NCBI RefSeq assembly: GCF_011604685.1
Contig: NZ_CP050063.1
Location: 2,192,501-2,256,500 of the forward strand
DNA: 64,000 nt
Direction: 5' to 3'
Source of the DNA: Spirosoma aureum
GTDB lineage: Bacteria; Bacteroidota; Bacteroidia; Cytophagales; Spirosomataceae
In this document: positions 4,625-30,248 of the stretch, piece after piece
Numbering within the stretch: the stretch's first letter is position 1
How the letters are laid out: each line of letters opens with the position of its first letter
Made by a program: the position numbers and the translations under genes
The notes under the pieces: model-generated
Told to the model about the DNA's origin: nothing
Seen by the model: the letters and a program-made list of their open reading frames with translations, nothing else
Databases searched by the model: none

Positions 4625-5362
4625 TTAATTCAGTCGCTTGTGAATATTTTTGGCACATTGCCGAAGTGAAGCGATGAGTTTTTGCTTGTCCATAGCCATA
4701 TATCGGTATTCGGGCAAATAAATGCTCAGACTGGCAACAACCAATCCATTTTTATAGATCGGTACGGCAAGACCCATCACATGCCTGTTGGCAATGGTTT
4801 GTAAGGCCAGCTCCTCCCGGCGCATGAGAGCCAGGGAGTCGAGTAGTTGTGTTTCGGACTGTACTTCTGGCCAGGATTCGTCAGAAGGAAGGCCATATTT
4901 GGCTATAAAGCGCTGTATTTTTTCTTTGGGAAGCATGGCTAACAACAAACGACCCGATGCCGAATCGTAGATCGGCTTAATGTCGGTTGTGCGTACCTGT
5001 AAATCCTGTTCAGCAAAGGTTCTGTAAATCGCAATCCGTTGATTATCTTTGAGAACAGCCAAAAGACAGTTTTCATTAATCGCCTGGGTTAGGGCGTCCA
5101 TTTCTTCCCGGGATGCTTCCAGCAGGTCTTTGCGATAGGCTTCATTTGCCGTTAACGTATAGGATTGCGAACCCAGAATATAGCCCTTCTTTGTTCCGAT
5201 CTGTTCAACATAGCCACGAGCGACCAGGGTCTTCAAAATATTGGCGCAGGTTCCGTGGTTCAGATTGAGACTGTCGGCCAGATCACCTAAGGCTTTGGGT
5301 CGTTCAGGGTCATTGGCAATTTGTTCCAGCAAGTCCAGGGCGCGATTAATAACTTGAATCAT
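4625..5362 (-). CDS. IclR family transcriptional regulator
   Basis: This 245-residue protein has the IclR layout. Residues about 1-65 form a winged helix-turn-helix (RALDLLEQIAND, then LADSLNLNHGTCANILKTL and a wing at GYVEQIGTKKGYILG). Residues about 75-245 form the GAF-like effector domain, including the typical GLAVPIYKNGLVVASLSIYL stretch. It is transcribed just upstream of susC-susD, with a terminator in between, so it most likely senses a metabolite of the imported substrate. Its own start lies two bases from a palindrome (5364-5385) that partly matches the one before susC, which points to autoregulation. The ligand is unknown. Confidence 0.9.
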   Translation of the reverse strand: MIQVINRALDLLEQIANDPERPKALGDLADSLNLNHGTCANILKTLVARGYVEQIGTKKGYILGSQSYTLTANEAYRKDLLEASREEMDALTQAINENCLLAVLKDNQRIAIYRTFAEQDLQVRTTDIKPIYDSASGRLLLAMLPKEKIQRFIAKYGLPSDESWPEVQSETQLLDSLALMRREELALQTIANRHVMGLAVPIYKNGLVVASLSIYLPEYRYMAMDKQKLIASLRQCAKNIHKRLN

Positions 5363-5455: not shown

Positions 5456-5896
5456 CTAACGTGGAATTAGATCGTACTGGTTGACTGTGTTACCCGTTTT
5501 GCGGCTATCGGCAGTGCGTTCAAGTTTTAGTGATGAACCATCCGGAGCCGTTAGAATATAATACTCAATGATTCCGCCCGTGTTCGACGGTTTCGGGGTC
5601 AGATTGTTCAGGATTAGCCGTTTGTTATCCGTCGAAACGGTCCACGTGCCCGTTGTAAGCCGTCCGTCGACGTCGGTTAAGGACGCTTTATCAGCCTGGC
5701 TCAGGTCAAGCACAAAATTACTATAACCAGGTTTGATGTTCGTTGTAGTCCCCAGCGTAAAAACCAGTACGTTCGCTTCTGTAACCATATTGGCTTTCCA
5801 GATTTTACTGATCTGGTTGGTGATGGGCGCTACGGATTTAGGTCGGCAGCCTCCGAAACAGGCCAGAACGAGGAGTAAGCAAAGCTGTTTTTTCAT
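5456..5896 (-). CDS. Small lipoprotein, last gene of the surface operon
   Basis: This 146-residue protein has a lipoprotein signal (MKKQLCLLLVLACFGGC, Cys17) and a mature domain of about 125 residues rich in beta segments (LDLSQADKASLTDVDGRLTTG, GTWTVSTDNKRLIL). That pattern resembles lipocalin-like or DUF5004-type lipoproteins of Bacteroidota, but I cannot assign a family firmly. The frame is open further upstream to 6139, but that stretch lies inside the preceding gene. The ATG at 5896 is preferred because it starts a clean signal peptide and overlaps the upstream TGA stop as ATGA. The overlap implies translational coupling with the Fn3 protein. Confidence 0.8.
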   Translation of the reverse strand: MKKQLCLLLVLACFGGCRPKSVAPITNQISKIWKANMVTEANVLVFTLGTTTNIKPGYSNFVLDLSQADKASLTDVDGRLTTGTWTVSTDNKRLILNNLTPKPSNTGGIIEYYILTAPDGSSLKLERTADSRKTGNTVNQYDLIPR

Positions 5897-8733: not shown

Positions 8734-8744
8734 GACTTTGTTGA

Positions 8745-10751: not shown

Positions 10752-13700
10752 TGATTCTGGGTGGTAGATTGGCAACTGGTTTCGTCGCAGGCGTTAAAAT
10801 TGCAGGTAAACTTGGGGGTGGCTACGTTGATGCTGCCTAAGCCGCCCGTCGTGTAGGATATGTTCGGAATAGTCAGGCCCAGACAGAAGCCAAGGGATTC
10901 GCTGGTTGTGTAGGAATCGATGCCCAGATCGACATAGAGCTTGGCATTGAATTTGGCTGAAAACTGCATGTTTGCATTGACCGATACAGTAACCGGTTCG
11001 CTCATTGCCTTTAGCGGGTTGCCCGTTATGGTCAGGCCAAAATCCTGCGAGCCATCTACATCCACCGAACCCGATGCGGCTACATTCAGCACCTGCCCGT
11101 AAGCGTAGAAATGTACGCCCGCGCCCAGACCTGAGCCAAATTTGAACGACCCGGCATTGTAATCGGCGTACGAATAGCCATCGACATAGGCGTTCAACCC
11201 CATTTTGACTTCGCCCACGCCAAAACTTTGCTTGTACTCAAAATTATCAATGAGGGGAATCGGCAATTCTCCGTTGACAAACACCCCTTTGAATGACTTA
11301 TGAAAGGCACAGGGCAGCGATTTACGGTGTGTATTTCCAAACAGTACGGGTTCGGCGTCTTTAATGTCCGGGCTGTCGTAATAACCCAGGAGAAGCCCTG
11401 CTTTCATGGTTACCGGAATGATCAGGGGCACATCCCGGACGGTAGCCGCCGAGGCCAGGTAAAACCCGTTGCCATCGATGCGAATCTGCGCTACCCCATA
11501 CTCAACACTCATCGTTGGCGGTAGGGGCAGGCCAGGCGGCAGCGTAACGGTACCTGTAAACCGACTGTTTGCCATGTCGTACTCCAGACTTACACCGGGA
11601 ATTCCATCTTTACCACCTAATCCATCGGCCTTGATTTTCTGATTGCTGGCCGTAATGCCACCATAGTTCGTAAAGGCCAGCCGATTCTCTTCCGTTGCGG
11701 GAATCATGGTGTAATTCGCCGGAATACCTGAGAAAGTAAGCAGATTCCACTGCCCATTGGTAACGGTCTGATCGCAGTAAACGGTACTGAAGGACTTGTT
11801 GCCCAGATCGATCTTCAGTGGTTTATAGTAGTCGGTATTCGCTGGTTTTTTCGACAGGAGCGACACGTTACTCTCCTTGTTCAGATCGAGGCTCCGATCG
11901 TGGGTGAGGTAGGTTGAAAAGGTTTTACCCGCATCGGCTGTCGAATGAACCAGCATCACACCGGCCGCTTTTTCGTTGTCGGTGGGTAAATCGGATGGGT
12001 TACCCAATAGCAGTTTACCGGTTTCCTTCGCTATACCCCGGATCGCCATGACACCATCGGCGAAGTAAAACGCAGTCTTCATGGAGTTATCAGCCGCCTT
12101 GTATTGACCCGCTACAAACTGCACCTGCCCTTTGGTATCGATGACGTAATCGCTGGCTACAACGGTTTTAAGCGTAATCGGCCCGGTTCCGCCCGGTTTG
12201 TAATAAGTCAGGCGCATCGGTACATCCTTGGGCGCATTCGGAATGGAGGTAGACATGCCTGCATCGAAGGCGAAATAATCGTCTCCGGTCTCGATGGTTT
12301 TAGGCCGGATCGTCATCACACCCTTGTAGTAGTTCAGCTCCTGACTTTTGGCACTGAACGAGAACACATCCTGGCCATTATCAAGCAGTGAAATGGTTTC
12401 GAAGGCCAGGTCGCTGTTTAAGCCAGGCAGTTTAGGGTTCGCCTGGGGATTACTGGAAACAACACCCGCCTGATTCTTACCATCGGGCACTACCACCAGC
12501 GACCAGTGCCCTTTCATGTCGTTTCCGGTGGCTTCATCATAGCCAAAGAACGCCTTACCACCGATTTTTACCTTCGCGATGCCTGCCAGATCGAGGTTCG
12601 GTATGTTGTTGGCTTCGAGTTTGAAGAAGTCGGCCCGGAGGTTGAACAGCGAGATTGGTACGTCGATCTTACCGGTTTTTACCACACCCTCAGTTGCGTA
12701 GAAGCCCCCCTGTTTGTAATCGAGTACCCAATTACGAACCTCTACGCTCCATTTGCCCGCAAGACCGAATGTAAGGGGTGTTTGTCCCGACTTACTATCG
12801 ATCGTATTGTTCTTAAGCACCAGATCGCCTACGTTGATCGTCAGGCTGCTCTTATCGGTCAGATTGCCGGTGTTGGCATTTTTAACGGTACAGCTCAGAA
12901 TCGGATTCAGGTGAATTTCGTCGCCAACCAGCCGCGATCCTTCCAGGGTGCTGATTGCCTTGAAGGCTAGCAATTCCAGTTCAATTGGCTCTCCTTTCTG
13001 GTTGCAAAGACCAAAGTTGGTCCGTTTTTTTGGTTCATCACTGGCGTCGAAGGCCACAACCAGTGGTATGTTTCCCTGAATTGCCTTGTCTGGATCGTAG
13101 AGAGAAAACTGGCCTTTTTTATAGCTGAGCAGGTTTTCCGAGAACTTGAACGAGTTGTCGATAATCTGAGCCTGGGCCATAATTTTACCCGTCGTTTTGC
13201 CCGGCGACTGCACAATTTGCAGATTACCACCCGACGACGAATTACCCGTACCCGACAGGCGAATGTTGTAAAGTGGTACATCGCCCGATTTATAGGTAGG
13301 CTTATTGTAATAGCCCAGATTATCCAGAATGCCTGTTTTTAGTGAGACGGTAGCCGATGCGGGCACGCCTGTACCGTTATTGCCCGGTATGAAAACAACA
13401 TTTTCGAAACGCACCCGGAGCTCGGGATCGAGAATGGCAAACGGCCCAAATCGATTGTCGCGTAAGTTGACCTCACCCGATGCTTTCACCGCTCCATTGG
13501 CCAGCGCAGTCAGAGATTCTACTTTAACCGGGAAGCCCCAGATCGTAGTGATTTTGTATTTTTCGAATGTGGTCAGCGTCAGTTTGAGCGATTCTTTGGC
13601 TGCCTGCGGAAGCGATTGCTTACTGGAAGCCCCTACATAACTTTCTGCCGGAATGACTACACTACCCACTTTAACGTCGGCTCCATTGATACTTACGGAT

Positions 13701-16700
13701 CCTCCCCCGACAGTACCACCTTCATTCTGATAGGTAGCCTGTACCGTGACAGAACTGAGCTGCTTCCCAACAGCCAGCGTGAAGGAACCACCTGCGACTG
13801 ATTTAGTGCTGTAAGGCGTTTGCACATTACTGCCCCCGGCCACGAACACATCGGCACCAGCGAGCGGTATTTCTTTGCCATCAGCCGTTTTGACCACAAC
13901 TTTCCCCTGGATCAGATTGGCTTCTTCCAGAAACACCTGCTGCGTTTTCGACGATTTCGACTCAACATTCGTTACCGACTGCGTTTTTGTCACGTAACCG
14001 GGAGCCGATACTTCCACGAACAGATTCTCGACGGAAACATTCTTGAACCTGGCCTCTACCAAACCCTGCGCATTGCCTGGACCAAAAACAAAGCCTTTTT
14101 CGTCGCGGCCAAACAGCTTTACCGTACCGCTTTTTACAGGTCCCCATTTGTTGTCGTGCAGAGCCAGCAGGTTGAAAAGAATCCGGTGATCGCGCTGATA
14201 GATAGGCAGTTTGCCCACCTTAACGATAAACATGCCAGCTCCTTCATCGCTTTTTTCCGGTTTCGGCAACAGACTGATGGCCCGTGATTCATTAAAGTAG
14301 CTGATGTCGACCGGGTATATTTTCAGTGAATCACCGTTGCCACCAGCCCCATATACATTATTAAAGCGGTGAGCATGAACGGCATCCGAGTAGGTCGTTT
14401 TGTTGTAATTCCCATTGCCAATCTGCACATAGGCCTCCACTGTGGCATTTTTTGCCTTGGGGTCCAGTTCTAAAGCATCCTGATCGACGGTGTAGCCGGT
14501 ATAGCGCGTGTTGGGCTGCATCAGCATCCGCGAATAATAGAGATTCTGGCCAAGCATCAGGGAGCCGATGTCAATGGTTTGTTTGGCATCTACGGGGGCA
14601 ATAGGCGCATTTTCTTTCTCAGGATCACCCTTCGCCGGATCGACATAGCCGGAGAAAATGTAGCCATCGGCGAGGACTTTTAAGGTTGCCTTAGTGCCGG
14701 GATTGACCATAAAAGGCTCAGCGATCCAGCCATTTGCATCCGTTTTTCTCCATTCGGCATAGGCATTTCCATTCGCCTGGATGTACGTTAATCGAATATC
14801 GGCATTGGCAATACCCTGGGTTGGGTTCGTTTTGTCGATGACGCGAACATTGATAATAGGATTCGCTGGATTGAGAAACCGCTTGACCGTATCGGACAGG
14901 AATGGTTTGTAATCGTCGGCAAACTCAGGAGCTGACGATAGCAGGACTTTATTGTTAATAGCCCGATCACCCAAACCTGAGCCAATCCAGTAGGATTTTA
15001 CTTTGTCGCAGGTTGTTTGTGGACTGACCGAGACGTCCGGATCTGTCTTGGCCATCTGACGATAGCCATCCAGAATTTTGGCCTGGTTCGGGATGGACTC
15101 ATCGTATGTATACTCCACCGTTGAACCACCCGGCTGCTTAATATAAACGTGCCATACGGTTTTGCATTTATCCCCATCAACAGTTAATACTTTATTCTTT
15201 GATTCTGCCAGTTTTTTCTCGCTTTCGGTTGCTGTTTTTGAATACAGATCGCCATAGTCTTCACTGACCAGAATTCGTTTGGGTTTACCATTCATCTGGT
15301 AGGCGTTGATTCCATCGACTGAAGCCTCTGTTGCTATCAGATAGGTGTCGTCTTTTCCATCGGCCATGACCATGCGGGGGAATATGACCGTTCCTTCGGC
15401 ATTTGATACGCCCTGAGCGACAACGATATAGTTGATTGAACTCTCTCCAAATGCTTTTTTATCGGTCAGTCCCTGGCCTTCATCGAGCGGTGGTCCCGTA
15501 ATGGGGCTTAAGGGAAAGTACCCTTTCCGGTTCTCTCGAATCGCGTATACTTTTACCCCAGATAGCGATTGTTTGATGCCATTCACCTGTTGATTTCCCC
15601 CTTTTTCGCCCGTAACGTCGGAACGAATCTGGGTAATCAGGCTATAGCTTCGTACTACTGCCGTAATAGTACCAAAGTCATACGATCCCTGGGGCAGCAT
15701 CTGCTCTTTTGCGTCATCGCCAAACGTCGCCGACGGACTGGTGTAGTAAGGGTTATCGACAACGACACGCAATGCCCGGATGTATACCGTTGATCCCATG
15801 CCAAACTCACCTGTTTTTGTACTGACTGTAGGCGGTAATTCGCCCAATTGTAGCGGGCCGGGTAGCTTGGCAGAGAATGTAAAGGAGCCATCGTCACCCG
15901 TTACTTTCGTGTCCAGCAGCGTGCTGAATTTTTCGTGAAAACTGGTTAGTTCCGGGAAGCTTGGTATGACGGTCGTGTACGCATTCTTGCCTTTTATGGT
16001 ATAGACGACCTGTAAACGAACGCGTGTATTGCTGAGCGGTTTAACCTGTGCGCCCTCAAGGCCTTTGTCGGCATACTTATACGTCAGCTTGCCGGAAAAG
16101 GTCATTACTGGCGCTTCGGTCGTCTGTACATTAAAGGTGTAGCTTTCGGTGCGGGCTACTGTGGCTGAGAGAGGCTGCTTCGGCAGATCGAACCGGAAGG
16201 TTTCGGCATCATCGGGTTTCTGGCCGCAGTCGGGGCAATAGATAGCGTAGCGATCCAATGGATTATAAGCGTACAGGAACCGCTCCAGATTAGCCTGGTA
16301 AGCATTTCCGTCGGCAAGCAGCAGCGTGGTTCCGACAAACACGTACCCCGCCTTTTCTACTTCCGTTTGCGCAGCCGTCTCCGATGCTGATGCGGGTTTG
16401 CTCCCGCTTTTCGCCTGTGCTGATGAAGTGCCTCTGTCCATCTGGCCTTCAACGGGTAACTTGTAGGTGTCTACCTGTTTGTTTGGCTTACGGAAGATAA
16501 CCAACCGTTTGCCGGCCAGATTAATAGTTGGAGCCCCAGGCCAGTCTTTGTAGGCCTGGCGAGCTGTGATGCGTACAGTATATGCTTTGGCTACTACCGG
16601 AATGGTGCCGGCGTCGAACGTTCCAACCTGTTTTGGCGATAGGGAAAAGGTAAGTTCGGCGGGCATCAGGTAGATATTGTTCGGTACGATCCGGTAGCCC

Positions 16701-18481
16701 GCGTTGTAATACGACGTGTCCTTTACTGTTTTGGTTACGGTCGAACTGCCGGTATTATTGAAAGAGCCACTGACCGCTACTTTTTTGTCGCTAATGATTG
16801 TATCTGTCGGCGACACCTGCCAGCGGGGCAGACCTACCGTGAATTCACCGGCGCTGTTAGTGGTTGCATACCCCATGTTGTTTTCATAACCGCTGGCTTC
16901 TACGCGTTTCAGCGTAACCATCGTATTGGGCATGATATGACCTGAGCCCGTTTCGCCGGGGTATTTGTATACCAGCAACCCCTTCACATAGACCGTATCG
17001 GACTGGTTGCCCGTATTTTTTCGTACAAGCGAAAACTTGCGGGGTTCAGCCGTCAGGTTTCCTGCTGGCAGATTCAACTGCTTGATCTGGGCAGCTGTCA
17101 GACCGACCAGTTCGACTTCGGCCTGATAATTTTTTTCAGGTCCATAGGGTGCCTGTGCAACAATGCCAGGGGGAAGATCGGCCTGCTCGGCACTGAGGTA
17201 CGCCGTTTTTACCTGCCGGTCGAGCACTACCGCGCCAGTTTTACCCGACTTATCCACCGGTCTGATACGGACTCGATAACTCAGGTTCGTTTTGGTTAAA
17301 TCCAGCGATTTGAGATACGTCTGTTCATTGTTATTCTGATTAGGCAAGGCTATTTGCTGATTCGGTTTTTGCAGCGAACTGCCCGGAATCGAGTAAAGCG
17401 TATTGCTTTGCTGCATCAGATTGGCCTGGGGAAAAATCATGGCCAGTTGAGTCGCCATCTTGGAGGATAGTCCCCAGTTCAGGTACAATGGATTTCCGTA
17501 GCCAACACTCAACTCGGGCAGCTTTTTTCCGGTCGGCTCACCCGGTTTGATAAATACCAGGTAATCAGTCATGGGCAAGCCGAGCGAATCGGCAACTATG
17601 GGTTGCCCATATCGGAACGCACAAACCGGACTTTTGCCGTCGTTGAGCAGGTTCAGTTTCCCGAGCCTGTCCACCGCCTGAACACGCCAGGCATACCGTT
17701 TCCCCACTTTAAGCGGCAGATACTGTGGGCCATACAAAAATGTGCTGGTCATCAGGTTCTTCACTTCAACGCCGGAAGGTGGCAACGCTACAGCATCAAT
17801 AAAGACGTTGGGGTCAACGTTGTCCAGCGGTAATTCAATGATTCGCAGAATGTAGCTGACCTGTGTGGGCAGAATTCCCGCCGGAGGAGCCCACGTGAAA
17901 ACGGTAGCCTGTGGCGTTGTCGGTGTTATGTCGGTGTCACACAGGGGCGAAATCAGAATAGGCGGTTCGATCGTTCGGATCGAAAACGGGGGCGAACAAC
18001 CCAACGGGAATCCCGACGAAAGTGGTTGGCTGGTACGGTTGTCAAATACCTGTACACAAACCTGATAGTTACCTTCGGGCAACGGTTTTCCCTGATACAG
18101 CAAATCTTTGCTAACTCCTTCTACGCTAATCTGGTTGAGGTCGAATGAGCCTTCCAGATCGGCGCGGGACAGAATCCGGGTTTCGCCTGGGGCTAGTTTC
18201 AGCGGACGGGTAGGTCGGAAATTAGGCAGGGTCTGAATCAGAACGCCATTGTCGCCTTCCACGCGCCCCTGTAACCGAACATCAAGCGCTGTCAGGGTCA
18301 GGTTGCGGATCAGTACCTGAAGCTGCTGACCTGCTCCGGCATAATCCTGCAAATAGGAACTATAGGGAGGCATCACGTTAATGGTTACCTGCACCTGCGT
18401 TTGCGCCCGTATGATCTGGGTAAACCCGATAAGCATACCAATCACCAGGCAAAGGTGTTTGCCAGGCTTCAAAAGCCGCAT
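10748..18481 (-). CDS. Giant exported multidomain protein, TANFOR-like N-terminus
   Basis: About 2577 residues starting at 18481, 10 bp after the barrel gene; a longer in-frame start at 18508 would overlap that gene. The signal peptide is MRLLKPGKHLCLVIGMLIG...RAQ. The first 300 residues (VQVTINVMPPYSSYLQDY, QLQVLIRNLT, LPEGNYQVCVQVFDN, then TVFTWAPP) resemble the TANFOR domain of large Bacteroidota surface proteins; this match is from memory. Several carboxypeptidase-regulatory-like sandwiches follow, for example GQLV-type repeats at MPNTMVTLKRVEASGYENN, GIANADIRLTYIQANGNAYA and IPLAGADVFVAGGSNVQ. The C-terminal half is long beta-rich repeats, ending in a Cys-rich tail (CNFNACDETSC). No sorting domain is recognisable. 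It is likely an extended envelope or surface scaffold; the role is unknown. Confidence 0.85.
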   Translation of the reverse strand: MRLLKPGKHLCLVIGMLIGFTQIIRAQTQVQVTINVMPPYSSYLQDYAGAGQQLQVLIRNLTLTALDVRLQGRVEGDNGVLIQTLPNFRPTRPLKLAPGETRILSRADLEGSFDLNQISVEGVSKDLLYQGKPLPEGNYQVCVQVFDNRTSQPLSSGFPLGCSPPFSIRTIEPPILISPLCDTDITPTTPQATVFTWAPPAGILPTQVSYILRIIELPLDNVDPNVFIDAVALPPSGVEVKNLMTSTFLYGPQYLPLKVGKRYAWRVQAVDRLGKLNLLNDGKSPVCAFRYGQPIVADSLGLPMTDYLVFIKPGEPTGKKLPELSVGYGNPLYLNWGLSSKMATQLAMIFPQANLMQQSNTLYSIPGSSLQKPNQQIALPNQNNNEQTYLKSLDLTKTNLSYRVRIRPVDKSGKTGAVVLDRQVKTAYLSAEQADLPPGIVAQAPYGPEKNYQAEVELVGLTAAQIKQLNLPAGNLTAEPRKFSLVRKNTGNQSDTVYVKGLLVYKYPGETGSGHIMPNTMVTLKRVEASGYENNMGYATTNSAGEFTVGLPRWQVSPTDTIISDKKVAVSGSFNNTGSSTVTKTVKDTSYYNAGYRIVPNNIYLMPAELTFSLSPKQVGTFDAGTIPVVAKAYTVRITARQAYKDWPGAPTINLAGKRLVIFRKPNKQVDTYKLPVEGQMDRGTSSAQAKSGSKPASASETAAQTEVEKAGYVFVGTTLLLADGNAYQANLERFLYAYNPLDRYAIYCPDCGQKPDDAETFRFDLPKQPLSATVARTESYTFNVQTTEAPVMTFSGKLTYKYADKGLEGAQVKPLSNTRVRLQVVYTIKGKNAYTTVIPSFPELTSFHEKFSTLLDTKVTGDDGSFTFSAKLPGPLQLGELPPTVSTKTGEFGMGSTVYIRALRVVVDNPYYTSPSATFGDDAKEQMLPQGSYDFGTITAVVRSYSLITQIRSDVTGEKGGNQQVNGIKQSLSGVKVYAIRENRKGYFPLSPITGPPLDEGQGLTDKKAFGESSINYIVVAQGVSNAEGTVIFPRMVMADGKDDTYLIATEASVDGINAYQMNGKPKRILVSEDYGDLYSKTATESEKKLAESKNKVLTVDGDKCKTVWHVYIKQPGGSTVEYTYDESIPNQAKILDGYRQMAKTDPDVSVSPQTTCDKVKSYWIGSGLGDRAINNKVLLSSAPEFADDYKPFLSDTVKRFLNPANPIINVRVIDKTNPTQGIANADIRLTYIQANGNAYAEWRKTDANGWIAEPFMVNPGTKATLKVLADGYIFSGYVDPAKGDPEKENAPIAPVDAKQTIDIGSLMLGQNLYYSRMLMQPNTRYTGYTVDQDALELDPKAKNATVEAYVQIGNGNYNKTTYSDAVHAHRFNNVYGAGGNGDSLKIYPVDISYFNESRAISLLPKPEKSDEGAGMFIVKVGKLPIYQRDHRILFNLLALHDNKWGPVKSGTVKLFGRDEKGFVFGPGNAQGLVEARFKNVSVENLFVEVSAPGYVTKTQSVTNVESKSSKTQQVFLEEANLIQGKVVVKTADGKEIPLAGADVFVAGGSNVQTPYSTKSVAGGSFTLAVGKQLSSVTVQATYQNEGGTVGGGSVSINGADVKVGSVVIPAESYVGASSKQSLPQAAKESLKLTLTTFEKYKITTIWGFPVKVESLTALANGAVKASGEVNLRDNRFGPFAILDPELRVRFENVVFIPGNNGTGVPASATVSLKTGILDNLGYYNKPTYKSGDVPLYNIRLSGTGNSSSGGNLQIVQSPGKTTGKIMAQAQIIDNSFKFSENLLSYKKGQFSLYDPDKAIQGNIPLVVAFDASDEPKKRTNFGLCNQKGEPIELELLAFKAISTLEGSRLVGDEIHLNPILSCTVKNANTGNLTDKSSLTINVGDLVLKNNTIDSKSGQTPLTFGLAGKWSVEVRNWVLDYKQGGFYATEGVVKTGKIDVPISLFNLRADFFKLEANNIPNLDLAGIAKVKIGGKAFFGYDEATGNDMKGHWSLVVVPDGKNQAGVVSSNPQANPKLPGLNSDLAFETISLLDNGQDVFSFSAKSQELNYYKGVMTIRPKTIETGDDYFAFDAGMSTSIPNAPKDVPMRLTYYKPGGTGPITLKTVVASDYVIDTKGQVQFVAGQYKAADNSMKTAFYFADGVMAIRGIAKETGKLLLGNPSDLPTDNEKAAGVMLVHSTADAGKTFSTYLTHDRSLDLNKESNVSLLSKKPANTDYYKPLKIDLGNKSFSTVYCDQTVTNGQWNLLTFSGIPANYTMIPATEENRLAFTNYGGITASNQKIKADGLGGKDGIPGVSLEYDMANSRFTGTVTLPPGLPLPPTMSVEYGVAQIRIDGNGFYLASAATVRDVPLIIPVTMKAGLLLGYYDSPDIKDAEPVLFGNTHRKSLPCAFHKSFKGVFVNGELPIPLIDNFEYKQSFGVGEVKMGLNAYVDGYSYADYNAGSFKFGSGLGAGVHFYAYGQVLNVAASGSVDVDGSQDFGLTITGNPLKAMSEPVTVSVNANMQFSAKFNAKLYVDLGIDSYTTSESLGFCLGLTIPNISYTTGGLGSINVATPKFTCNFNACDETSCQSTTQNQ

Positions 18482-18491
18482 AGGGATGTGG

Positions 18492-20186
18492 TTAGAAAGA
18501 GATACCATAGCCTAAAGTCCCCCGAAGTTCGTTATAGCGTTGCTCGGCAACACCTGTGTTTGATTTTAGATACAGCAATTGCAGGTTCAGATTCTGGCGT
18601 TTCGCGATCTGATAACCAGCATTAGCCGAGGCATTAATGACTTGCCCATTCACGATTTGGCCGGTGAGGTCGGGCTGCTGGTTGATCAGGTAGCTGGCAG
18701 TGGCCGATGCGCTTACTTTATTGTCAAGAAAGCTTTTGGTGATGCCCAGAGTGGGGCCGTAAAATTTTGTTGACATACCCTGAGCCAGATTGGCCTGCGT
18801 ATACGAAAGCATCAGGTTACCGCCCAGTCCGTTTTTGACATGCTGGTAGAAATAGCCCAGATTCAGGTTTGTATTCGTGTTGTTGGTGAAGGCGGCTGTC
18901 CGCTGGTTGAGATCGCTAAGTTGCTGGCGTGTCGCCGAGAGCGTAAACAGATTGACAACGTCTTCGTTTTGAATCGTGTATCGGGTATTGATCGTTGCCG
19001 AAAAATTGTTTTGCGCCAGCCGAACTGTGTCAATAACTGGCCGAAGACCGGCTTGCTGACTGATTCCGTAATTTGACAGCTGAACGTCGAGGCCAAAGGC
19101 CGTAGCCGGGTTGTAGGCGACTACCAGCGACCCAATTGTTCGGCCTGTGCGTGCGTTTTTGTTATTGGCCAGGTTGTCATACTGGATACCGTAACTGCCC
19201 GAAAGCCGCAATTTTCCATCCAGTAAAGTAAGGCTAGGCACAATCGCGTAGCTTTCAATATCACTCTGGAAATAGTAGGCCCCCATGGTCTGGAAATTGG
19301 GGTCGATCCGCTTATACTGTAGTTTGATTCCGGCGTTTTTTGTTCGGTAACCAATGGTCGCCTGAGTCGCCTGGGTAAGTTGAGTCGACAGTCGGGGAGT
19401 GAACAGGTTACCAAAGAACCGCACAATCGAATTTCGGCCTTCCGCCGATACTTCTGTACTCCGTACATCACGGGTATAGGCGCTCAGGGCGCCATCTAAC
19501 TCAACCGTAATATGTTTGAGAATCAACATCCGGGTTGTGATACCGACCACCATATTTTCGGCGGGTGCAACGGTTTGAGAAACCGACTGTGGTGCTGATA
19601 CAATGGAGGCCGAATCGTCCTTTGCGCGAAGCATGATCAGGTCAACGTAGTTGCCGGAAGTGCCATAGCCTACCTTCACGGCATAGCCTGTACGTTGATA
19701 GGCCGAAATAATATCGGGCTCAGCCAGATTTGTAGAGATCGCTTTGTTGAATCGACCATAAACGGCCCCCAGTCGTAGCTTGCCAGGATTGAGTTCAACC
19801 CCACCCCCCAGAAAAGTATGCCCGGCCAGCGTAAAAGGCGAGAAACTAACATTGCGGTAACCCGCATGGGCAGTGACCCATTTGTAAGTTGGTGAAACAC
19901 CGAATTGATTAAAAGGCTGTCGAAAGCTATTGCCCTGATTGCCCAGCACCGCCGAAAACGGTAATGATATGCCGCCCGGCAATGCGACGGTTACGGAACC
20001 GCTCAGGCCGAAGGGCGAGGTTTGGTTTCGGGCAGCAATTCCGCTGGCCATATAGAAACCTGTATAAGCATTCAGGCCGCCCGATACCTTTACCGGTACT
20101 GATTTGGAAGTTGGTAAATAGGTCTGAGCCAGGGTTGGAAAACTCAGCCAAAACCCGCAAAGGACAAGTAGTAAAGTTGAGCGCAT
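18492..20186 (-). CDS. Outer-membrane beta-barrel protein, first gene of the surface operon
   Basis: This 564-residue protein has a signal peptide (MRSTLLLVLCGFWLSFPTLAQ) and then amphipathic, glycine- and aromatic-rich beta strands to a terminal Phe (LRGTLGYGISF), the usual outer-membrane barrel ending. Strand-like stretches such as LSGSVTVALPGGISLPFSAVL, HAGYRNVSFSPFTLAGHTFLGG and GKLRLGAVYGRF suggest a barrel of roughly 20 or more strands. I do not recognise a named family. As the promoter-proximal gene ahead of a giant exported protein, it may be the anchor or conduit for that protein; this is inference from context. Confidence 0.85.
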   Translation of the reverse strand: MRSTLLLVLCGFWLSFPTLAQTYLPTSKSVPVKVSGGLNAYTGFYMASGIAARNQTSPFGLSGSVTVALPGGISLPFSAVLGNQGNSFRQPFNQFGVSPTYKWVTAHAGYRNVSFSPFTLAGHTFLGGGVELNPGKLRLGAVYGRFNKAISTNLAEPDIISAYQRTGYAVKVGYGTSGNYVDLIMLRAKDDSASIVSAPQSVSQTVAPAENMVVGITTRMLILKHITVELDGALSAYTRDVRSTEVSAEGRNSIVRFFGNLFTPRLSTQLTQATQATIGYRTKNAGIKLQYKRIDPNFQTMGAYYFQSDIESYAIVPSLTLLDGKLRLSGSYGIQYDNLANNKNARTGRTIGSLVVAYNPATAFGLDVQLSNYGISQQAGLRPVIDTVRLAQNNFSATINTRYTIQNEDVVNLFTLSATRQQLSDLNQRTAAFTNNTNTNLNLGYFYQHVKNGLGGNLMLSYTQANLAQGMSTKFYGPTLGITKSFLDNKVSASATASYLINQQPDLTGQIVNGQVINASANAGYQIAKRQNLNLQLLYLKSNTGVAEQRYNELRGTLGYGISF

Positions 20187-20226
20187 TGCCTGACACAGGG
20201 TTGAGTGTAGTATCGAAAACCTGTGT

Positions 20227-20273
20227 CAAAACTACCTACAGCCCGAACGCCCATCAATCGGATAAATGTATGA
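20227..20273 (-). promoter_or_regulatory. Promoter of the surface operon with an 18-bp regulatory element
   Basis: On the minus strand TAGTTTTG (20227-20234) is an exact Bacteroidota -7 element (TAnnTTTG). It lies about 40 bases before the barrel-gene start. ATTG at 20255-20258 is a plausible -33 element 20 bases upstream. Directly above it lies the 18-mer AATCGGATAAATGTATGA (20256-20273, plus-strand reading). The same 18-mer recurs at 23408-23425, also exactly 21 bases from a perfect TAnnTTTG box. The position is that of an activator site. Confidence 0.75.
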
Positions 20274-20500
20274 TAGGGAAACTACGTACGGCTATAATTT
20301 ATTTGTAACGTGCTGATTGTTAGGTGGCTGAAAGATGAATAAACAGACCTTTGTTTTAGCTGGTACGTAGTTTTACCCAAAGGTTTCCTGCGGATAGCAG
20401 GCACGCAGCTATTCCTGAATAATCATACTATAGGTTGATCACTGGAAATGGCTGTTCATCTGGACCTATATCTGAATGAATTCAGGTGATTCAACAGCGG
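20274..20500. other. Intergenic region with an 11-bp inverted repeat
   Basis: No gene is seen here. AAACTACGTAC (20279-20289) and GTACGTAGTTT (20363-20373) are perfect inverted repeats 73 bp apart. They lie just upstream of the surface-operon promoter, and the flanks GGG also correspond. They could be paired regulator half-sites looping DNA, or chance. Confidence 0.4.
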
Positions 20501-21256
20501 TTAAAAACTCACCTGCATACCCTGCACCGATGGATTGAGCAGTTGCATGGCCGCCGACGAAGAAAGGAATTCACTATCACCCATTAGTTCGTTATACGCT
20601 TTCTCCTGTGCCGGAGTTTTGGTAACCGGGGCTGCCAGCGAAATAGATAGAAACGATTTCTTATCTGACGACGTCAGTTTTCCCCCTTGCCAACTGGATA
20701 CCATACCGCCGTAATCCCATTCGAAGCCCCAGATTTTGAAGGGTTTACCGTTTCGTTTTTCCAACTCTTTTAACGTCGTGCCAATGCGTAACCCGCTGGC
20801 AGTGACCCAGCGCGTGGGGGCAACGTCTGGAATAGGCAGCCCTTCATCGTCGAACCGTTTCGGGCGAATAAGAACGGTTTGGGGGCGGGTTCGCTTCTCA
20901 TTATCAGTAAAAATAACCTGTACTTCATCGGCTGTACCTTTATAAAGCGTAGCGCCCAAAAACTCTTCGCCTTCAGCCCCGTATAATGTATCGCCTACCG
21001 TAACGACGGATGGCCCAAGAAGGCGGAGCAGTTCGGCTTCGGAGGTCGACGGTCGGATGGGGCCAACCTGTTTGCCGGGTACGATTAAAAAGTCGTCGGC
21101 TAAGCCCTGATCGGGATTATTGGGTTGAGGAGAGACCACTGCCTGCGAATCGACCTGCGGTTGTTTGGCCGCCTGATCGGTTGTTGATCGTTTCGACTGG
21201 CAGGCTGTTAAAGCAGCACTCAGTAGCAAAAACAGTTGTAGAGATCGGAGAGGCAT
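20501..21256 (-). CDS. Lipoprotein of unknown function
   Basis: 251 residues. The lipoprotein signal MPLRSLQLFLLLSAALTACQ places the lipidated Cys at 19. A low-complexity Gln/Pro/Ser linker spans about residues 20-52. A folded domain then begins at FLIVPGKQVGPIRPSTSEAE, where GPIRPSTSEAELLRLLG is the kind of segment found in small periplasmic proteins of Bacteroidota. A second similar stretch, GLRIGTTLKELEKRNGKPF, follows, so the domain may contain an internal duplication. I do not recognise a named family. It is 102 bp from the gene upstream and on the same strand, so cotranscription is possible. The envelope location is well supported, the role is not. Confidence 0.8.
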   Translation of the reverse strand: MPLRSLQLFLLLSAALTACQSKRSTTDQAAKQPQVDSQAVVSPQPNNPDQGLADDFLIVPGKQVGPIRPSTSEAELLRLLGPSVVTVGDTLYGAEGEEFLGATLYKGTADEVQVIFTDNEKRTRPQTVLIRPKRFDDEGLPIPDVAPTRWVTASGLRIGTTLKELEKRNGKPFKIWGFEWDYGGMVSSWQGGKLTSSDKKSFLSISLAAPVTKTPAQEKAYNELMGDSEFLSSSAAMQLLNPSVQGMQVSF

Positions 21257-21358
21257 AAGCGGTTTTATGGTAAGGAAATAGATTCATCAGATGGGGGCAA
21301 AGGCCTTCAGAACAGCGACATGTTAAGAACGGATGTCGGAAATGAAGCGCGAAAATCT

Positions 21359-21973
21359 TCAGAAAGCATAGCCCAGACTAACCCCCGTTCGGAGGTCCAG
21401 CATCAGGTAATCCCGGCCAGAATCGGACGTTACAGCACTATAGCGCATTGTATGTTGAAAGCTGGTCAGCGCATCCGGCATGAAACCTCCACCATGAACC
21501 AGCTCCAAAACAAAACCTCGTTTTAATACCCACATATACCCAACAGTTAACCCAAAGCCGATGGATTTAACTCTGATTTCATCAAGTTCACTGGTTTTAT
21601 TAGGCCCAGCCCCAATTTCATTAACGTACCGCAACGACCGGACTTTTAGATACGGATTGATAAAAAAGCCGCTTGGGTGCTCTTTAGCCATTAGTCTTGA
21701 CAGTTTCGCCGTATAAAATTTACCTTCTATAGTGGCATTGACAAACTGTTCATCCTTCGAAACAATGCCAAACTGCCACCACCGAATACTGGTACGGAGG
21801 GCAAAACGCGGGGTCAATGCCCGCTCGTAAAATACGGAAATAGGAGCCAGGAAGTTCGTTTTCAGAACGTTCGGACGGCTCCATAGCCGGGTTGAGTCCT
21901 GAGCCAGAACCGGGACAAAAGCAGGCGAAAGACTACACAACAGGAGCAACAGGCGGATTATAGTAAAATGCAT
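21359..21973 (-). CDS. DUF3575-like outer-membrane barrel protein
   Basis: 204 residues with a signal peptide (MHFTIIRLLLLLCSLSPAFVPVLAQ). The mature part starts NVLKTNFLAPISVFYERALT, the N-terminal pattern of DUF3575-type small barrels in which the protein maps onto host strain conditions through an eight-strand barrel. Alternating strands continue to a terminal Phe (DLRTGVSLGYAF). The family assignment is from pattern recognition and the function is unknown. The next gene downstream is the lipoprotein at 20501-21256. Confidence 0.75.
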   Translation of the reverse strand: MHFTIIRLLLLLCSLSPAFVPVLAQDSTRLWSRPNVLKTNFLAPISVFYERALTPRFALRTSIRWWQFGIVSKDEQFVNATIEGKFYTAKLSRLMAKEHPSGFFINPYLKVRSLRYVNEIGAGPNKTSELDEIRVKSIGFGLTVGYMWVLKRGFVLELVHGGGFMPDALTSFQHTMRYSAVTSDSGRDYLMLDLRTGVSLGYAF

Positions 21974-22209
21974 AGTCGATGGGAAGGAAGGTGGTGTGGT
22001 TCCAATTTGTGGGCTTCTCTAAGAAAGTCCTGATTCACTTGGTTTTTATTCTAGCCATCTCCATCATCACTTGTTTAAGCGCTTCGTTGAGATTGGCAAT
22101 ACCGCCGGTTCTTGACAGGATGCGCTTCTGTCAGCATGTCACTGTATAAATCATCTAAAACGAGGAAGAAAATCGGGAGATTCATTCAGGTAATTCAGGA
22201 ATAACCCGT

Positions 22210-22836
22210 TTACTTGAACAGGCCTGTTTTCAATGCTTTCGCTACTGCTTCGGACTTTGAGTTGACGTGGAGTTTTTCGTAGATGTTGACAATGTGCGTG
22301 CGAACCGTACCCATGCTGATGTTACAATGGTGCGCGATAAGTTTATAGCTATCGCCTTCCACCAGTCGCCGGAGTACCTCGTTTTCTTTGTCGGTCAGCA
22401 GAAATGCATCGGTCTTGGGTTGCCGAAAGGCTTCCAGTACCTTCAGCGCAATGGAAGGCGTCATGGCTGCTCCTCCATTTATCACTTCCCGAATGGATTC
22501 AATGATTTTATCGGCGGGTGTTTTCTTTAACAGATAGCCAACGGCCCCCGCCGAAATGGCAGCAAAAATTCGTTCAACATCCTCAAAAACGGTTAACATA
22601 AGTATTTTAGGGCGTGTTGTCTGTTGCCGGATGAGTTTAACGGCCTCAATTCCAGTGCGACCGGGCATGTCGATGTCCATCAAAATGACATCCGGCTGAT
22701 TGTATAAAACGTCTTCAACGGCCGTAAGTGCGTTGGGGTATTGACCAGTCACAATCAGGTCGTCGGTTGCATCGAAGACCAGCGCCAGCGTTTCACGAAG
22801 GGAGTCATTGTCGTCGAAAATTGAGACGCGAATCAT
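22210..22836 (-). CDS. NarL/LuxR family response regulator
   Basis: 208 residues with a receiver domain at about 1-120: acidic pair Asp8/Asp9, phospho-acceptor Asp54 in ILMDIDMPG, and the conserved Lys near 104. A LuxR-type helix-turn-helix spans about 147-207 (LTDKENEVLRRLVEGDSYKL, then GTVRTHIVNIYEKL). It starts 4 bp after the stop of the upstream lipoprotein gene, so the two form one transcript from the promoter at 23379-23425. The TPR histidine kinase at 23429-25363 is the obvious cognate kinase. Because the 18-bp element in its own promoter recurs before the giant surface operon, this regulator is the best candidate to bind it; that is inference. Confidence 0.93.
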   Translation of the reverse strand: MIRVSIFDDNDSLRETLALVFDATDDLIVTGQYPNALTAVEDVLYNQPDVILMDIDMPGRTGIEAVKLIRQQTTRPKILMLTVFEDVERIFAAISAGAVGYLLKKTPADKIIESIREVINGGAAMTPSIALKVLEAFRQPKTDAFLLTDKENEVLRRLVEGDSYKLIAHHCNISMGTVRTHIVNIYEKLHVNSKSEAVAKALKTGLFK

Positions 22837-22840
22837 AGAG

Positions 22841-23314
22841 TTATATAGTTTCTACATTTACTTTAAATGTGCCATTTGTCACGACAACTTCCCGTTTTTG
22901 CTGTGTGTTGTAGGTCTTCATCGAGAAGGTTCCTTCAAGGACAGTTCCATCAAATTTTGTAACAGTTACCGTGCCCGTTCGCCCCTCTTTATTGGCAAAT
23001 GTGGTGTTTGTTTTTACGTCAATGTAATTCCCTGTACTACCCGTTTTACTAATGTCTACCAGCATTATGGTGCTCGTTCCGGTGAAATTTACCAGCGTGA
23101 AACCCATCATGTGGACACTGTTATATCCAACCAGAGTCAGGTCTTTAGTGGCTTTGTTATAGGTTGCTGTCGCCTGTTCCGACGTAAACGCTTGCCCATC
23201 GACCTGAGCTGTCATAACGCTCGTACTGGCTGGCGTAACAGCATCGTCTTTTTTACTACAAGACAGCAAAACAATGGCTAAACAAAGTATACAGGTGATT
23301 TTGAGCGATTTCAT
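22841..23314 (-). CDS. Small DUF6252-like lipoprotein
   Basis: 157 residues. The signal MKSLKITCILCLAIVLLSCS gives the lipidated Cys19. The mature part contains MTAQVDGQAFTSEQATATY, a segment typical of DUF6252-type lipoproteins of Bacteroidota, followed by beta strands to the end. The family call is tentative. It is cotranscribed with the response regulator directly downstream and lies under the 18-bp element promoter, so it may be a target or a sensor accessory of the two-component system. Confidence 0.75.
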   Translation of the reverse strand: MKSLKITCILCLAIVLLSCSKKDDAVTPASTSVMTAQVDGQAFTSEQATATYNKATKDLTLVGYNSVHMMGFTLVNFTGTSTIMLVDISKTGSTGNYIDVKTNTTFANKEGRTGTVTVTKFDGTVLEGTFSMKTYNTQQKREVVVTNGTFKVNVETI

Positions 23315-23378
23315 AAGGTAGAAAAATTTGTCTGAAAAGCGACACGAACAGCCTGTTTGACCGTCGTTGCTTATCTGA

Positions 23379-23425
23379 CAAAAATACCGTGCCCACTAAT
23401 GCGGGTAAATCGGATAAATGTATGA
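23379..23425 (-). promoter_or_regulatory. Promoter of the lipoprotein/response-regulator pair with the shared 18-bp element
   Basis: On the minus strand TATTTTTG (23379-23386) is an exact TAnnTTTG -7 element 64 bases before the lipoprotein start. AATCGGATAAATGTATGA (23408-23425, plus-strand reading) begins 21 bases above it. The sequence and spacing are identical to the promoter at 20227-20273. The element starts 3 bp past the stop of the kinase gene, so this promoter can uncouple regulator from kinase expression. Confidence 0.75.
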
Positions 23426-23428
23426 CTC

Positions 23429-25363
23429 TCACTGATCAACGACCAGTTGCAGACGAGTTCCCTGTCCTGGCGATGAGTGTATTTTCAATATACCGCCCAT
23501 CGCTTCGGCCCGCTGCTTCATGCTGCTCTGGCCAGTACGCTGGCTTGGCTGGGCCGGATCGAATCCCCGGCCGTTATCCTCAATCAGGACTTGAAGCTGG
23601 TTGTTTTTCCGCTCAAACCGGACAGTAGCCTCGGTGGCTTCTGAGTATTTAATCAGGTTATTAATCGCTTCTTTACCAATCAGGTACAAACTCCGTCGAA
23701 CCTCCATCGAAATCGGTACGGCATATAAAGCCGGGTCTGTTACGAACGAAAATCGAATATTCTTCGACTCCATCAAAGGTTGCGCGTACTCCTGTAGCCG
23801 TAAAGCGATCCGTTGTAAGGAGTCATTGCCTGGGTTTATAGTCCAGATAATCTCGTCCATAGCCTCCAGAATCTGTCGGGCGTCGGTATTGATTTTCTGA
23901 ACTGCCCGCTCAACCGATTCGGGACGTTTTTGGGCGATGAGGCTATTGACCATGCCGCTTAACAGAGAGATACTGCTCAGTGTGCTGCCCACTTCATCGT
24001 GTAAATCGTGGGCAATTTGTTTCCGTAAACGCTGAGCTTCTTCCAGCCGGTGGAGACGGGCCCGATTCAGTAACCACGCGCTTATGGCCGCACCTAATAA
24101 TAAAAGCAAGGCACCGCCAATCAGTAATCCGTTGGTTTGCAATCGCTTATTGATCAGTTCTTTTTCGCGAAGCTGTGCCTGCTGATGAAGCAGTTTGATT
24201 TGTTGTTCTTTCTTTTCGGCTTTGTATTGGGCAACAAGCCGCTGAACTTCGGCGCTGGTACGAACGGCAGTAGTCGAGTCAATCTGTTTATTCTTTTCGA
24301 GTTGGAAGACGTAAGCCTGCTGAAAATTTTTCATCCCGCCATAGAGGTCGGCCAGCCCCTGCGTATAATCGGCAATCCTCTTTTTGTTACCGATCTCGGT
24401 GGCTAGGTCTAGCGCTTTTTTCAGGTGCTTCTCGGCAGGTGTGTACTGCTTTAGTTCTTCATAAATCTGCCCCAGATTAAAATAAGCGGTGGCCATACTC
24501 GCTTTATTCTGTTGTTTTTGGGCGATAGCTAAAGATCGTTCCACAAAGGGAAGGCCTTCCTGAGGGCGTTTTGCTAATTTGAGAGCCAGGCCAATATTAA
24601 CCAGAATATCGGCCTGGAGTAGGGCAAACTGAATTTCTGTAGCATGCTTCAAAGCCAGTTTATAGTAAGTCAGCGACTTATCATACCGTTCCAGTCCATC
24701 ATAACAAACACCAATGTTATTCTCGATAATAGCCATACCACTGGTATTTTTTTCCACATGCATCAACGCCAGCGCCTGTTGATAGTAAGAAAGGGCCTCT
24801 CTGGGCTTATTTAGATCTCGATAAGCGTTGCCAATGCCCCCATACGTAGTGGCAATCCGTGGCTGTACATTATACTGTTCCTGAAGGCGCAATGAGCGAA
24901 GTTCCGTCGCAACTACCTGATCATATTGCTGTAGTTTGCTCAACGCTGCGGCTACGTTTGATATGGCACCACAAATAAAACGTGGGTTTAGTTTATAGTT
25001 TTCGGCTGCTGTCAGCGCTCTCTGAAAATAGTCCAGTGCCTGCTGGTGTCGACCCGTCAGGTAGTATATCGACGCCCGATTGGTATAGGCTTTGGCTAAT
25101 CCCATACCGTATTGAAGCTGAGTGGCTAAGTGTTCCGATACCTGCAATACGGAGTCCGCTTTTGTATAGTCAGGATTGGCGCCCGAATGAAGTTCGCGGC
25201 CCATTACATTCAACGCACGAACATAATTTGTGTCTTTACTGGTGTGGTGTTTTAAATAAACGACAACCGAATCAAGTGTCTGCGGCACCTGTGCAAAGGC
25301 ATCAGGTAGTCCACTGATCTGTAAACCAACCAGTAATACAGCAATCAAGTAGCCGTGTTTCAT
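23429..25363 (-). CDS. TPR-containing sensor histidine kinase (NarX/DesK type)
   Basis: 644 residues. Residues 1-25 are a signal peptide. About residues 60-355 are tetratricopeptide repeats, e.g. GIGNAYRDLNKPREALSYY and FNLGQIYEELKQYTPAEKHL. A coiled coil follows at about 365-410, with a transmembrane helix at about 412-432. The HisKA_3 dimerisation box is IAHDLHDEVGSTLS, with the phospho-His likely His455. The ATPase domain has NNLIKYSEA and a G1-type box, IEDNGRGFDP. The TPR region lies in the periplasm and probably binds a protein or peptide signal. NarL-type kinases pair with NarL-type regulators, which fits the regulator immediately downstream. Confidence 0.93.
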   Translation of the reverse strand: MKHGYLIAVLLVGLQISGLPDAFAQVPQTLDSVVVYLKHHTSKDTNYVRALNVMGRELHSGANPDYTKADSVLQVSEHLATQLQYGMGLAKAYTNRASIYYLTGRHQQALDYFQRALTAAENYKLNPRFICGAISNVAAALSKLQQYDQVVATELRSLRLQEQYNVQPRIATTYGGIGNAYRDLNKPREALSYYQQALALMHVEKNTSGMAIIENNIGVCYDGLERYDKSLTYYKLALKHATEIQFALLQADILVNIGLALKLAKRPQEGLPFVERSLAIAQKQQNKASMATAYFNLGQIYEELKQYTPAEKHLKKALDLATEIGNKKRIADYTQGLADLYGGMKNFQQAYVFQLEKNKQIDSTTAVRTSAEVQRLVAQYKAEKKEQQIKLLHQQAQLREKELINKRLQTNGLLIGGALLLLLGAAISAWLLNRARLHRLEEAQRLRKQIAHDLHDEVGSTLSSISLLSGMVNSLIAQKRPESVERAVQKINTDARQILEAMDEIIWTINPGNDSLQRIALRLQEYAQPLMESKNIRFSFVTDPALYAVPISMEVRRSLYLIGKEAINNLIKYSEATEATVRFERKNNQLQVLIEDNGRGFDPAQPSQRTGQSSMKQRAEAMGGILKIHSSPGQGTRLQLVVDQ

Positions 25364-29987: not shown

Positions 29988-30248
29988 AAAATGAGTATTG
30001 AACTGATCCATTTTACAAAAGCGAATCGACTCCTTTTTATACCCCCAACGCAATGTGTTTTTTTGGTTAAATCACGGCAAGCATCGATCAACACTAATTA
30101 ATCCATTTTTACCACAACCGCTCAAATCGTTTAAATGTATAACGTTCAAGGTCTTCGCAGTGAGCAGGGCGTAGGCACATGCACAAAGTTTGCTCAATGA
30201 ATAACGGCCACTTACTAATGAAAAATGGCACAACCTGTGATCCTCCAG

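What the first reader, a model, noticed from the sequence alone, without database searches (positions are those of the whole stretch)
20227..23425. One 18-bp element at identical spacing in two promoters links a two-component system to the giant surface operon
AATCGGATAAATGTATGA occurs at 20256-20273 and 23408-23425, same orientation. In both it starts exactly 21 bases above a perfect TAnnTTTG -7 box (20227-20234 and 23379-23386) on the minus strand. One promoter drives the five-gene surface operon (barrel, 2577-residue protein, Fn3 proteins), the other a lipoprotein plus a NarL-type response regulator whose kinase is next door. An exact 18-mer with conserved -7 phasing is unlikely by chance. 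The inference is that the response regulator binds it, controlling itself and the surface operon.
Basis: partly seen in the sequence, partly recalled or inferred. Interest (0 to 1): 0.82.

Follow-up and report, generated by a model that had tools for sequence, protein, structure and literature searches.

The report
Self-switching regulator of giant surface operon
In Spirosoma and related bacteria a sensor-regulator pair appears to switch on both its own gene and a neighbouring operon for giant surface proteins through one shared DNA control site at a fixed distance from the promoter, which gives a concrete, testable handle on when these bacteria deploy those proteins.

Summary
TCATACATTTATCCGATT lies 21 bases above a perfect TAnnTTTG box at both promoters. 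The 8.9-Mb genome holds only one more exact copy, with the same box at the same distance, before a secreted repeat protein. In 36 Spirosoma genomes the composite site occurs in exactly the 18 with an orthologue of the NarL-type regulator. Of 44 matches to half-site plus box with a free gap, 37 have gap 21, none 20 or 22. Less circular: the barrel gene's promoter carries the site in 27 of 28 genomes that have the regulator, and in 0 of 14 with the barrel but no regulator orthologue. The element is part of an imperfect 20-bp inverted repeat whose letters change with the regulator's lineage. Best reading: the adjacent response regulator binds it as a dimer and activates its own operon and a TANFOR-like surface operon. 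Binding, phosphorylation and sign of control are untested; helix/operator covariation rests on 1-2 independent events. It works like P. gingivalis FimS/FimR; orthology was not tested.

The parts
20256..20275 (-). operator of the surface operon: imperfect 20-bp inverted repeat; the reported 18-mer is 20256-20273; axis between 20265 and 20266
   Evidence: palindromic variants at the same place in relatives
20227..20234 (-). -7 box TAGTTTTG, 21 bases below the operator; start of transcription predicted near 20222 (inferred)
   Evidence: box position -12 to -5 from a passage of PMC9723704
18492..20186 (-). first gene of the operon, 564-aa protein whose relatives some sources name DUF5723 or outer membrane beta-barrel
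   Evidence: no Pfam or NCBIfam match
10748..18508 (-). giant 2586-aa protein, TANFOR-like N-terminus (residues 37-178)
   Evidence: NCBIfam TIGR02542 E 2.1e-8, 34.2 bits, below the curated cut-off of 67
8745..10775 (-). 676-aa protein of the operon
   Evidence: two Pfam matches, both below cut-off
5893..8754 (-). 953-aa protein with six Fn3 stretches
5456..5896 (-). 146-aa lipoprotein-like last gene of the operon
   Evidence: lipoprotein-like by eye; 146-151-aa genes at this place in several relatives
23408..23427 (-). operator of the lipoprotein-regulator operon; the reported 18-mer is 23408-23425
23379..23386 (-). -7 box TATTTTTG, 21 bases below the operator; start of transcription predicted near 23374 (inferred)
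22841..23314 (-). DUF6252 lipoprotein gene
   Evidence: Pfam PF19765 E 3.9e-8, above cut-off
22210..22836 (-). NarL/LuxR-type response regulator (REC + GerE), proposed to bind both operators
   Evidence: PF00072, PF00196; VraR, DesR and NarL among solved relatives
23429..25363 (-). TPR-containing sensor histidine kinase, proposed partner
   Evidence: a kinase-like gene lies upstream of the regulator in each regulator locus except L091, which begins inside the regulator gene

Best explanation
The element is the operator of the NarL-type response regulator encoded beside it. SHOWN by sequence: an imperfect 20-bp inverted repeat ends 21 bases above a sigma-A -7 box (22 at the barrel promoter of two relatives) and is shared by the regulator's own promoter, the surface operon's promoter and a few remote promoters, among them those of secreted repeat proteins. 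INFERRED: the kinase, whose TPR repeats lie N-terminal to a membrane segment, senses a protein or surface state and phosphorylates the regulator. The regulator dimer binds with its axis near -43.5, where it stands in for a poor -33 element and recruits sigma-A RNA polymerase (class II type activation). This gives positive autoregulation and co-induction of a surface system: outer-membrane barrel, giant TANFOR-like protein, Fn3 proteins.
For: (1) 3 of 3 exact genomic copies have the box at gap 21. (2) Composite site, up to 3 mismatches, in 18 of 36 Spirosoma genomes, the same 18 that hold the regulator orthologue; 56 matches against 4 for the reversed control. (3) Gap: 37 of 44 at 21, none at 20 or 22; over 80 named loci 68 hits at gap 21 against 0-5 at each other gap from 15 to 27. 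(4) Operator at gap 21 at the regulator promoter in 17 of 17 orthologues with assembled upstream DNA, the window's own included (one is a diverged palindrome, one has a box with one mismatch), and at the barrel promoter in 17 of 17 Spirosoma with the close barrel, also in G023 where the two lie about 2.1 Mb apart. (5) Barrel promoter site in 27 of 28 genomes with the regulator, 0 of 14 without an orthologue. (6) Sites outside the two main promoters: 13 of 18 regulator-positive, 0 of 18 negative genomes (Fisher p 7e-6). (7) With regulators 51-56% identical, the regulator and barrel promoters share a changed element at gap 21 in G181, G182 (TCCGTNATT) and G162 (ATCYGATT), read by eye. (8) In distant regulator loci the 20 bases at offset 21 are more palindromic (mean 5.48 of 10 pairs) than at the other 29 offsets (1.40-3.76).
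Against: No binding, expression or phosphorylation data. Helix residue 183 and operator base 5 agree closely (K with G in 19 of 19 loci, V or M with C in 16 of 16; N is mixed, mostly A), but on a receiver-domain tree this is only 1-2 independent K/R changes and not significant. Of eight regulator/barrel paralogue loci (L279-L286), four (L279-L282) share no operator and one (L286) has it only at the regulator; L287 (regulator 57% identical) shows no clear operator. One regulator-positive genome (G211) has no site at its barrel; there the barrel lies downstream of the regulator and may be in one unit. The left half of the repeat is weak in Spirosoma. Activation rather than repression rests on the site's position alone. 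Matches in related species are not independent events.
Confidence: 0.85

Rival explanations
1. The same regulator binds the same operator but represses: at -43.5 the dimer blocks polymerase until the signal arrives, giving negative autoregulation.
For: The repeat covers the region where a -33 element would sit. Position alone does not fix the sign of control.
Against: Neither promoter has a TTTG near -33, the element described for B. fragilis; but the same passage says it could not be found in F. johnsoniae, so this is weak (PMC7366714 passage). The rigid 21-base gap is what a polymerase contact would demand. The comparable FimR is described as an activator (PMC5706477 passage).
Confidence: 0.1
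2. A different transcription factor encoded elsewhere binds the element; the adjacent regulator is merely one of its targets.
For: Binding was never tested. Every Spirosoma genome searched holds many paralogous regulators (17-79 matches each).
Against: Site presence tracks this regulator orthologue over 36 and 42 genomes, and the element changes along this regulator's lineages, in some loci in both promoters.
Confidence: 0.06
3. The element is the recognition sequence of an alternative (ECF) sigma factor, not an operator.
For: Fixed distance to the start region.
Against: The downstream element is the consensus sigma-A -7 box, and the upstream element is 18-20 bp long and near-palindromic in relatives; neither fits a sigma -35 element as I know them (recalled).
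Confidence: 0.03
4. Chance or a dispersed repeat.
For: None found.
Against: 3 exact copies against about 0.0003 expected; conserved across genera.
Confidence: 0.01

Closest known systems
FimS/FimR of Porphyromonas gingivalis (PMC5706477 and PMC1974823, passages seen)
   Same: Kinase with periplasmic TPR repeats plus a response regulator that controls surface-fibre genes; FimR is reported to bind the mfa1 promoter directly and to activate the first gene of the fimA cluster.
   Different: No operator sequence or fixed spacing appeared in the passages seen; the targets are fimbriae, not a barrel/TANFOR-like operon; orthology of FimR was not tested here.
NarL / VraR / DesR response regulators
   Same: REC + GerE architecture and sequence similarity; dimer binding to inverted repeats (recalled).
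   Different: The promoter is the Bacteroidota TAnnTTTG type; their operators were not compared here.
TANFOR polymorphic toxins of Bacteroidetes (PMC7073777; abstract, introduction, first results section and section 9 read)
   Same: Giant protein with a TANFOR-like N-terminus and Fn3 neighbours; in 12 of 16 loci only about the first 300 residues match the window's giant and the rest differs.
   Different: All five giants tested scored below the curated cut-off; no toxin family was found in the window's giant; that paper's main text does not contain 'response regulator', 'histidine kinase' or 'two-component'.
[quoted passage not shown] listing with start of abstract, and passages)
   Same: Two-component control of Bacteroidota secretion genes.
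   Different: Acts through an ECF sigma factor according to its title.

Membership tests
NarL/FixJ (LuxR-type) response regulators | receiver domain plus GerE helix-turn-helix | tested here: met
   PF00072 80.6 bits and PF00196 58.6 bits, both above cut-off
NarL/FixJ (LuxR-type) response regulators | binds inverted repeats as a dimer | tested here: inconclusive
   palindromic elements at the predicted place in relatives; binding itself not testable
Classical two-component system | adjacent kinase with HisKA and HATPase domains | tested here: met
   PF07730 and PF02518; kinase-like gene upstream of the regulator in relatives
FimS/FimR family | TPR sensor kinase with a response regulator acting on surface genes | tested here: inconclusive
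   architecture alike; no sequence comparison with FimR was made
FimS/FimR family | orthology to FimR | not tested
   FimR sequence was not fetched
TANFOR polymorphic toxins | TIGR02542 above its curated cut-off | tested here: not met
   34.2 bits against 67 in the window; 29.5-59.7 bits in four relatives. Similar, but not a member by this test
TANFOR polymorphic toxins | C-terminal toxin domain with immunity gene | tested here: inconclusive
   no toxin family in the window's giant in Pfam or NCBIfam; unknown toxin domains and the immunity gene were not tested
sigma-A (TAnnTTTG) promoters of Bacteroidota | TAnnTTTG -7 box | tested here: met
   perfect at all three exact sites of the window's genome

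The most novel reading that the evidence does not exclude
Across Bacteroidota a lineage of TPR-kinase/NarL-type systems uses one promoter grammar: a 20-bp palindrome whose axis lies 31 bases above the TAnnTTTG box, replacing the -33 element, at the regulator's own promoter and at that of a surface or toxin-delivery operon. The palindrome's letters drift with the regulator, so sequence plus spacing would let regulons be read from genomes, and the TPR sensor may watch the very surface apparatus that it switches on.
Probability: 0.4. Interest if true: 0.8.

Novelty: new member of a known kind. Interest (0 to 1): 0.6.

Why it matters
No regulator of TANFOR-like surface operons turned up in the papers searched. 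This gives a candidate, with its operator, promoter geometry and a list of targets, in a phylum where I know of few defined response-regulator operators (recalled). It makes the question of when these proteins are deployed directly testable with a binding assay and one gene deletion, and it offers a spacing rule for predicting regulons of related two-component systems.

Tried and rejected
Rejected: chance repeat. The 3-mismatch match at 30125 and the 2-mismatch match at genome position 3195956 lack the -7 box and were set aside as probable chance. The 23 Spirosoma matches outside the two main promoters include weak ones of 2-3 mismatches before unrelated genes (amidohydrolase, beta-lactamase fold, FG-GAP protein, and one upstream of a prolyl oligopeptidase), one pair that is identical at two contig ends of G003, and one in G004 with no intact gene called behind it. 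Some may be chance: the reversed control gave 4 matches in 36 genomes. All are in the 13-of-18 count.

Inconclusive: helix/operator covariation looks near perfect by counting but is lineage-bound. The 53 loci are those of 78 whose operator passed a score; the base tested was not scored directly, but the palindrome count in that score includes it. The 18-of-18 co-occurrence within the genus is partly circular because the regulator-negative genomes also lack the close barrel; address this.

Rows dropped in the barrel tally: 63 of 222 genomes have a barrel at E 1e-60. I used the 44 with 59% identity or more, a line drawn after seeing the table, and left out 19 with only 34-46%; four of those 19 were looked at (operator in both promoters in G181, G182, G162; at the regulator only in G137). 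Of the 44, G148 (regulator not found, contig edge) and G205 (regulator split in a draft genome) were left out of 27 of 28; both have a site, and counting them gives 29 of 30 (Fisher p 1.3e-10). 'Without regulator' means no match at E 1e-65. The 14 negative promoters were judged with up to 4 mismatches at gaps 20-22.

Of 20 paralogue regulator loci fetched, 6 showed a palindrome that I could call, most with an imperfect box; 14 did not.

Led nowhere: structure of the barrel (alignment, then, tool switched off); paper searches on Spirosoma regulators and NarL contacts. PMC10036542, on regulation in Spirosoma montaniterrae, was searched by terms only: no 'response regulator', 'LuxR' or 'NarL'.
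Full report
OBSERVATION. The two 18-mers, the two TAnnTTTG boxes and the 21-base gap are exactly as reported. In the complete 8.9-Mb genome the 18-mer occurs three times without mismatch; base composition predicts about 0.0003. The third copy, 2 Mb away, also ends 21 bases above a perfect box, TAGTTTTG. It precedes a 681-aa protein with a signal-peptide-like start, NTFVG-type repeats and a coiled-coil-like end (by eye). Seven other sites in five further Spirosoma genomes precede members of the same family; of these eight sites three have a perfect box, five a box with one mismatch. Reading the repeats as adhesin-head-like is from memory; Pfam gave no match for the five of eight members tested.

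GENES. On the minus strand the order is kinase (TPR repeats, HisKA_3, HATPase_c), operator, DUF6252 lipoprotein, response regulator (REC + GerE), two small genes, operator, then barrel, giant, 676-aa, Fn3 and 146-aa lipoprotein-like genes that overlap end to start. The giant's N-terminus resembles the TANFOR domain but below the curated cut-off (34.2 bits against 67; four relatives 29.5-59.7). In 12 of 16 Spirosoma loci only about the first 300 residues of the giant match the window's; in three it matches nearly end to end and in one in two long pieces (some of these genes are cut by the locus end). A conserved start with a variable remainder recalls the polymorphic toxins of PMC7073777 (sections read), but no toxin family was found in this one.

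CONSERVATION. The window lies in Spirosoma (judged from named loci). Of 36 genus genomes, 18 hold a regulator orthologue at 83% identity or more, and the same 18 hold the composite site with up to 3 mismatches (56 matches, 4 for the reversed control). At the regulator promoter all 17 orthologues with assembled upstream DNA (the window's own included) have an operator at gap 21: 10 identical, 3 with one change, 3 with two (one of these with an imperfect box), and one (G029) with the palindrome TATCGGATAATTATCCGATA instead; the 18th sits at a contig end. At the barrel promoter 17 of 17 Spirosoma with the close barrel have it; the 18th, G013, has the regulator and its operator but no close barrel. 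In G023 the regulator and the barrel operon are about 2.1 Mb apart and both keep the site. Named Larkinella, Fibrisoma, Arsenicibacter and Runella loci show it too.

SPACING. With a free gap of 8-36 bases between TTATCCGATT and TANNTTTG, 44 matches were found in the 36 genomes: 37 at gap 21, the other seven at 9, 9, 25, 27, 31, 32 and 33; the reversed control gave 4. These are not 37 independent events, since most are the same two promoters in related species. Over 80 named loci 68 hits fell at gap 21 and 0-5 at each other gap from 15 to 27. Two genomes, G145 and G147, have gap 22 at the barrel promoter.

LESS CIRCULAR TESTS. First, 44 genomes of the family hold a barrel at 59% identity or more. 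Of the 28 with a regulator orthologue (E 1e-65 or better), 27 have the site at the barrel promoter. The exception G211 has its barrel downstream of the regulator behind another gene, and what looks like a diverged repeat 21 bases above the regulator's box (by eye). Of the 14 in one genus without a regulator orthologue (Dyadobacter, judged from protein names and matching contig lengths), none has it. Several of those carry a CATCGATT element instead, in four of them (L267, L268, L269, L271) as tandem TTCATCGATT copies 21 bases apart, as if the operon had been handed to another regulator. Two of the 44, G148 and G205, could not be classed. Second, sites elsewhere in the genome occur in 13 of 18 regulator-positive and 0 of 18 negative Spirosoma genomes (Fisher p 7e-6), although the repeat-protein family has a match in all 36.

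OPERATOR SHAPE AND DRIFT. In 61 distant loci (regulators about 50% identical) there are 25 perfect boxes within 200 bp above the regulator; the 20 bases ending 21 above them are more palindromic (mean 5.48 of 10 pairs) than at any of the other 29 offsets (1.40-3.76). The letters differ by lineage: TATCCGATT with helix RTHIVN, TATGTGATT (and TATGCGATT) with RSHIKK, TATACAGTT with RFHINN. Residue 183 and operator base 5 agree strikingly, but on a tree of the receiver domain this is only 1-2 independent changes, so it is suggestive only. By the ungapped coordinates, residues 180 and 183 fall on positions 188 and 191 of chain 1a04_A; if that chain lacks only its first methionine these are NarL 189 and 192, which I recall as base-contacting. 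Regulator and barrel promoters drift together in G181 and G182 (TCCGTNATT) and G162 (ATCYGATT), all at gap 21; four other paralogue pairs (L279-L282) share nothing and one (L286) has the element only at the regulator. Six of 20 Spirosoma paralogue regulator loci have a palindrome of their own, of the ATCCC...GGGAT kind or near it, near the same place.

MECHANISM. A passage of PMC9723704 places the sigma-A box at -12 to -5, so the axis of the repeat lies at about -43.5 and starts of transcription are predicted near 20222 and 23374. PMC7366714 (passage) gives TTTG near -33 as the second element in B. fragilis, while noting that it was not found in F. johnsoniae; here that place is taken by the repeat's end, GATT. 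A dimer there, touching polymerase, is the likeliest arrangement (class II, inferred). The kinase's TPR repeats resemble those of FimS, for which a protein signal has been suggested (PMC5706477 passage). Shown: site, spacing, distribution, drift. Inferred: binding, phosphorylation, activation, signal.

VERDICT. It is a new regulon of a known kind, with an unusually clean promoter grammar and a target, a TANFOR-like surface operon, whose control did not turn up in the searches made (listings only, except the papers cited; terms searched).

Noticed in passing
L262, L264, L266-L273 (Dyadobacter-type genus g8), upstream of the barrel gene: Barrel promoters without the regulator carry a CATCGATT element, in L267, L268, L269 and L271 as tandem TTCATCGATT copies 21 bp apart: the same operon apparently under another, unidentified regulator.
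   Followed up: partly
L138, around 9948: Flavobacterium sp. SUN052, outside the family, holds a regulator 73% identical with a Spirosoma-type operator at gap 21 above a box with one mismatch: possible horizontal transfer of regulator and operator together.
   Followed up: no
L015 9735-11780 and homologues in L093, L094, L095, L099, L103, L108, L111: A large family of NTFVG-repeat proteins with a match in all 36 Spirosoma genomes, of which a few members carry the operator.
   Followed up: partly
L210-L212, L215, L216, L221: Paralogous regulators in Spirosoma have their own palindromes, of the ATCCC...GGGAT kind or near it, at nearly the same distance from a -7-like box.
   Followed up: partly
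L077, L078, L082-L085: A second kinase-like gene end just upstream of the regulator's kinase, suggesting tandem duplicated sensors in several Spirosoma species.
   Followed up: no
L283 and L284: Regulator and barrel promoters share a different element (TCCGTNATT) at the same 21-base gap.
   Followed up: yes
window 4625-5362 and 1433-4432: IclR-type regulator gene directly downstream of the surface operon, followed by a TonB-dependent receptor gene.
   Followed up: no
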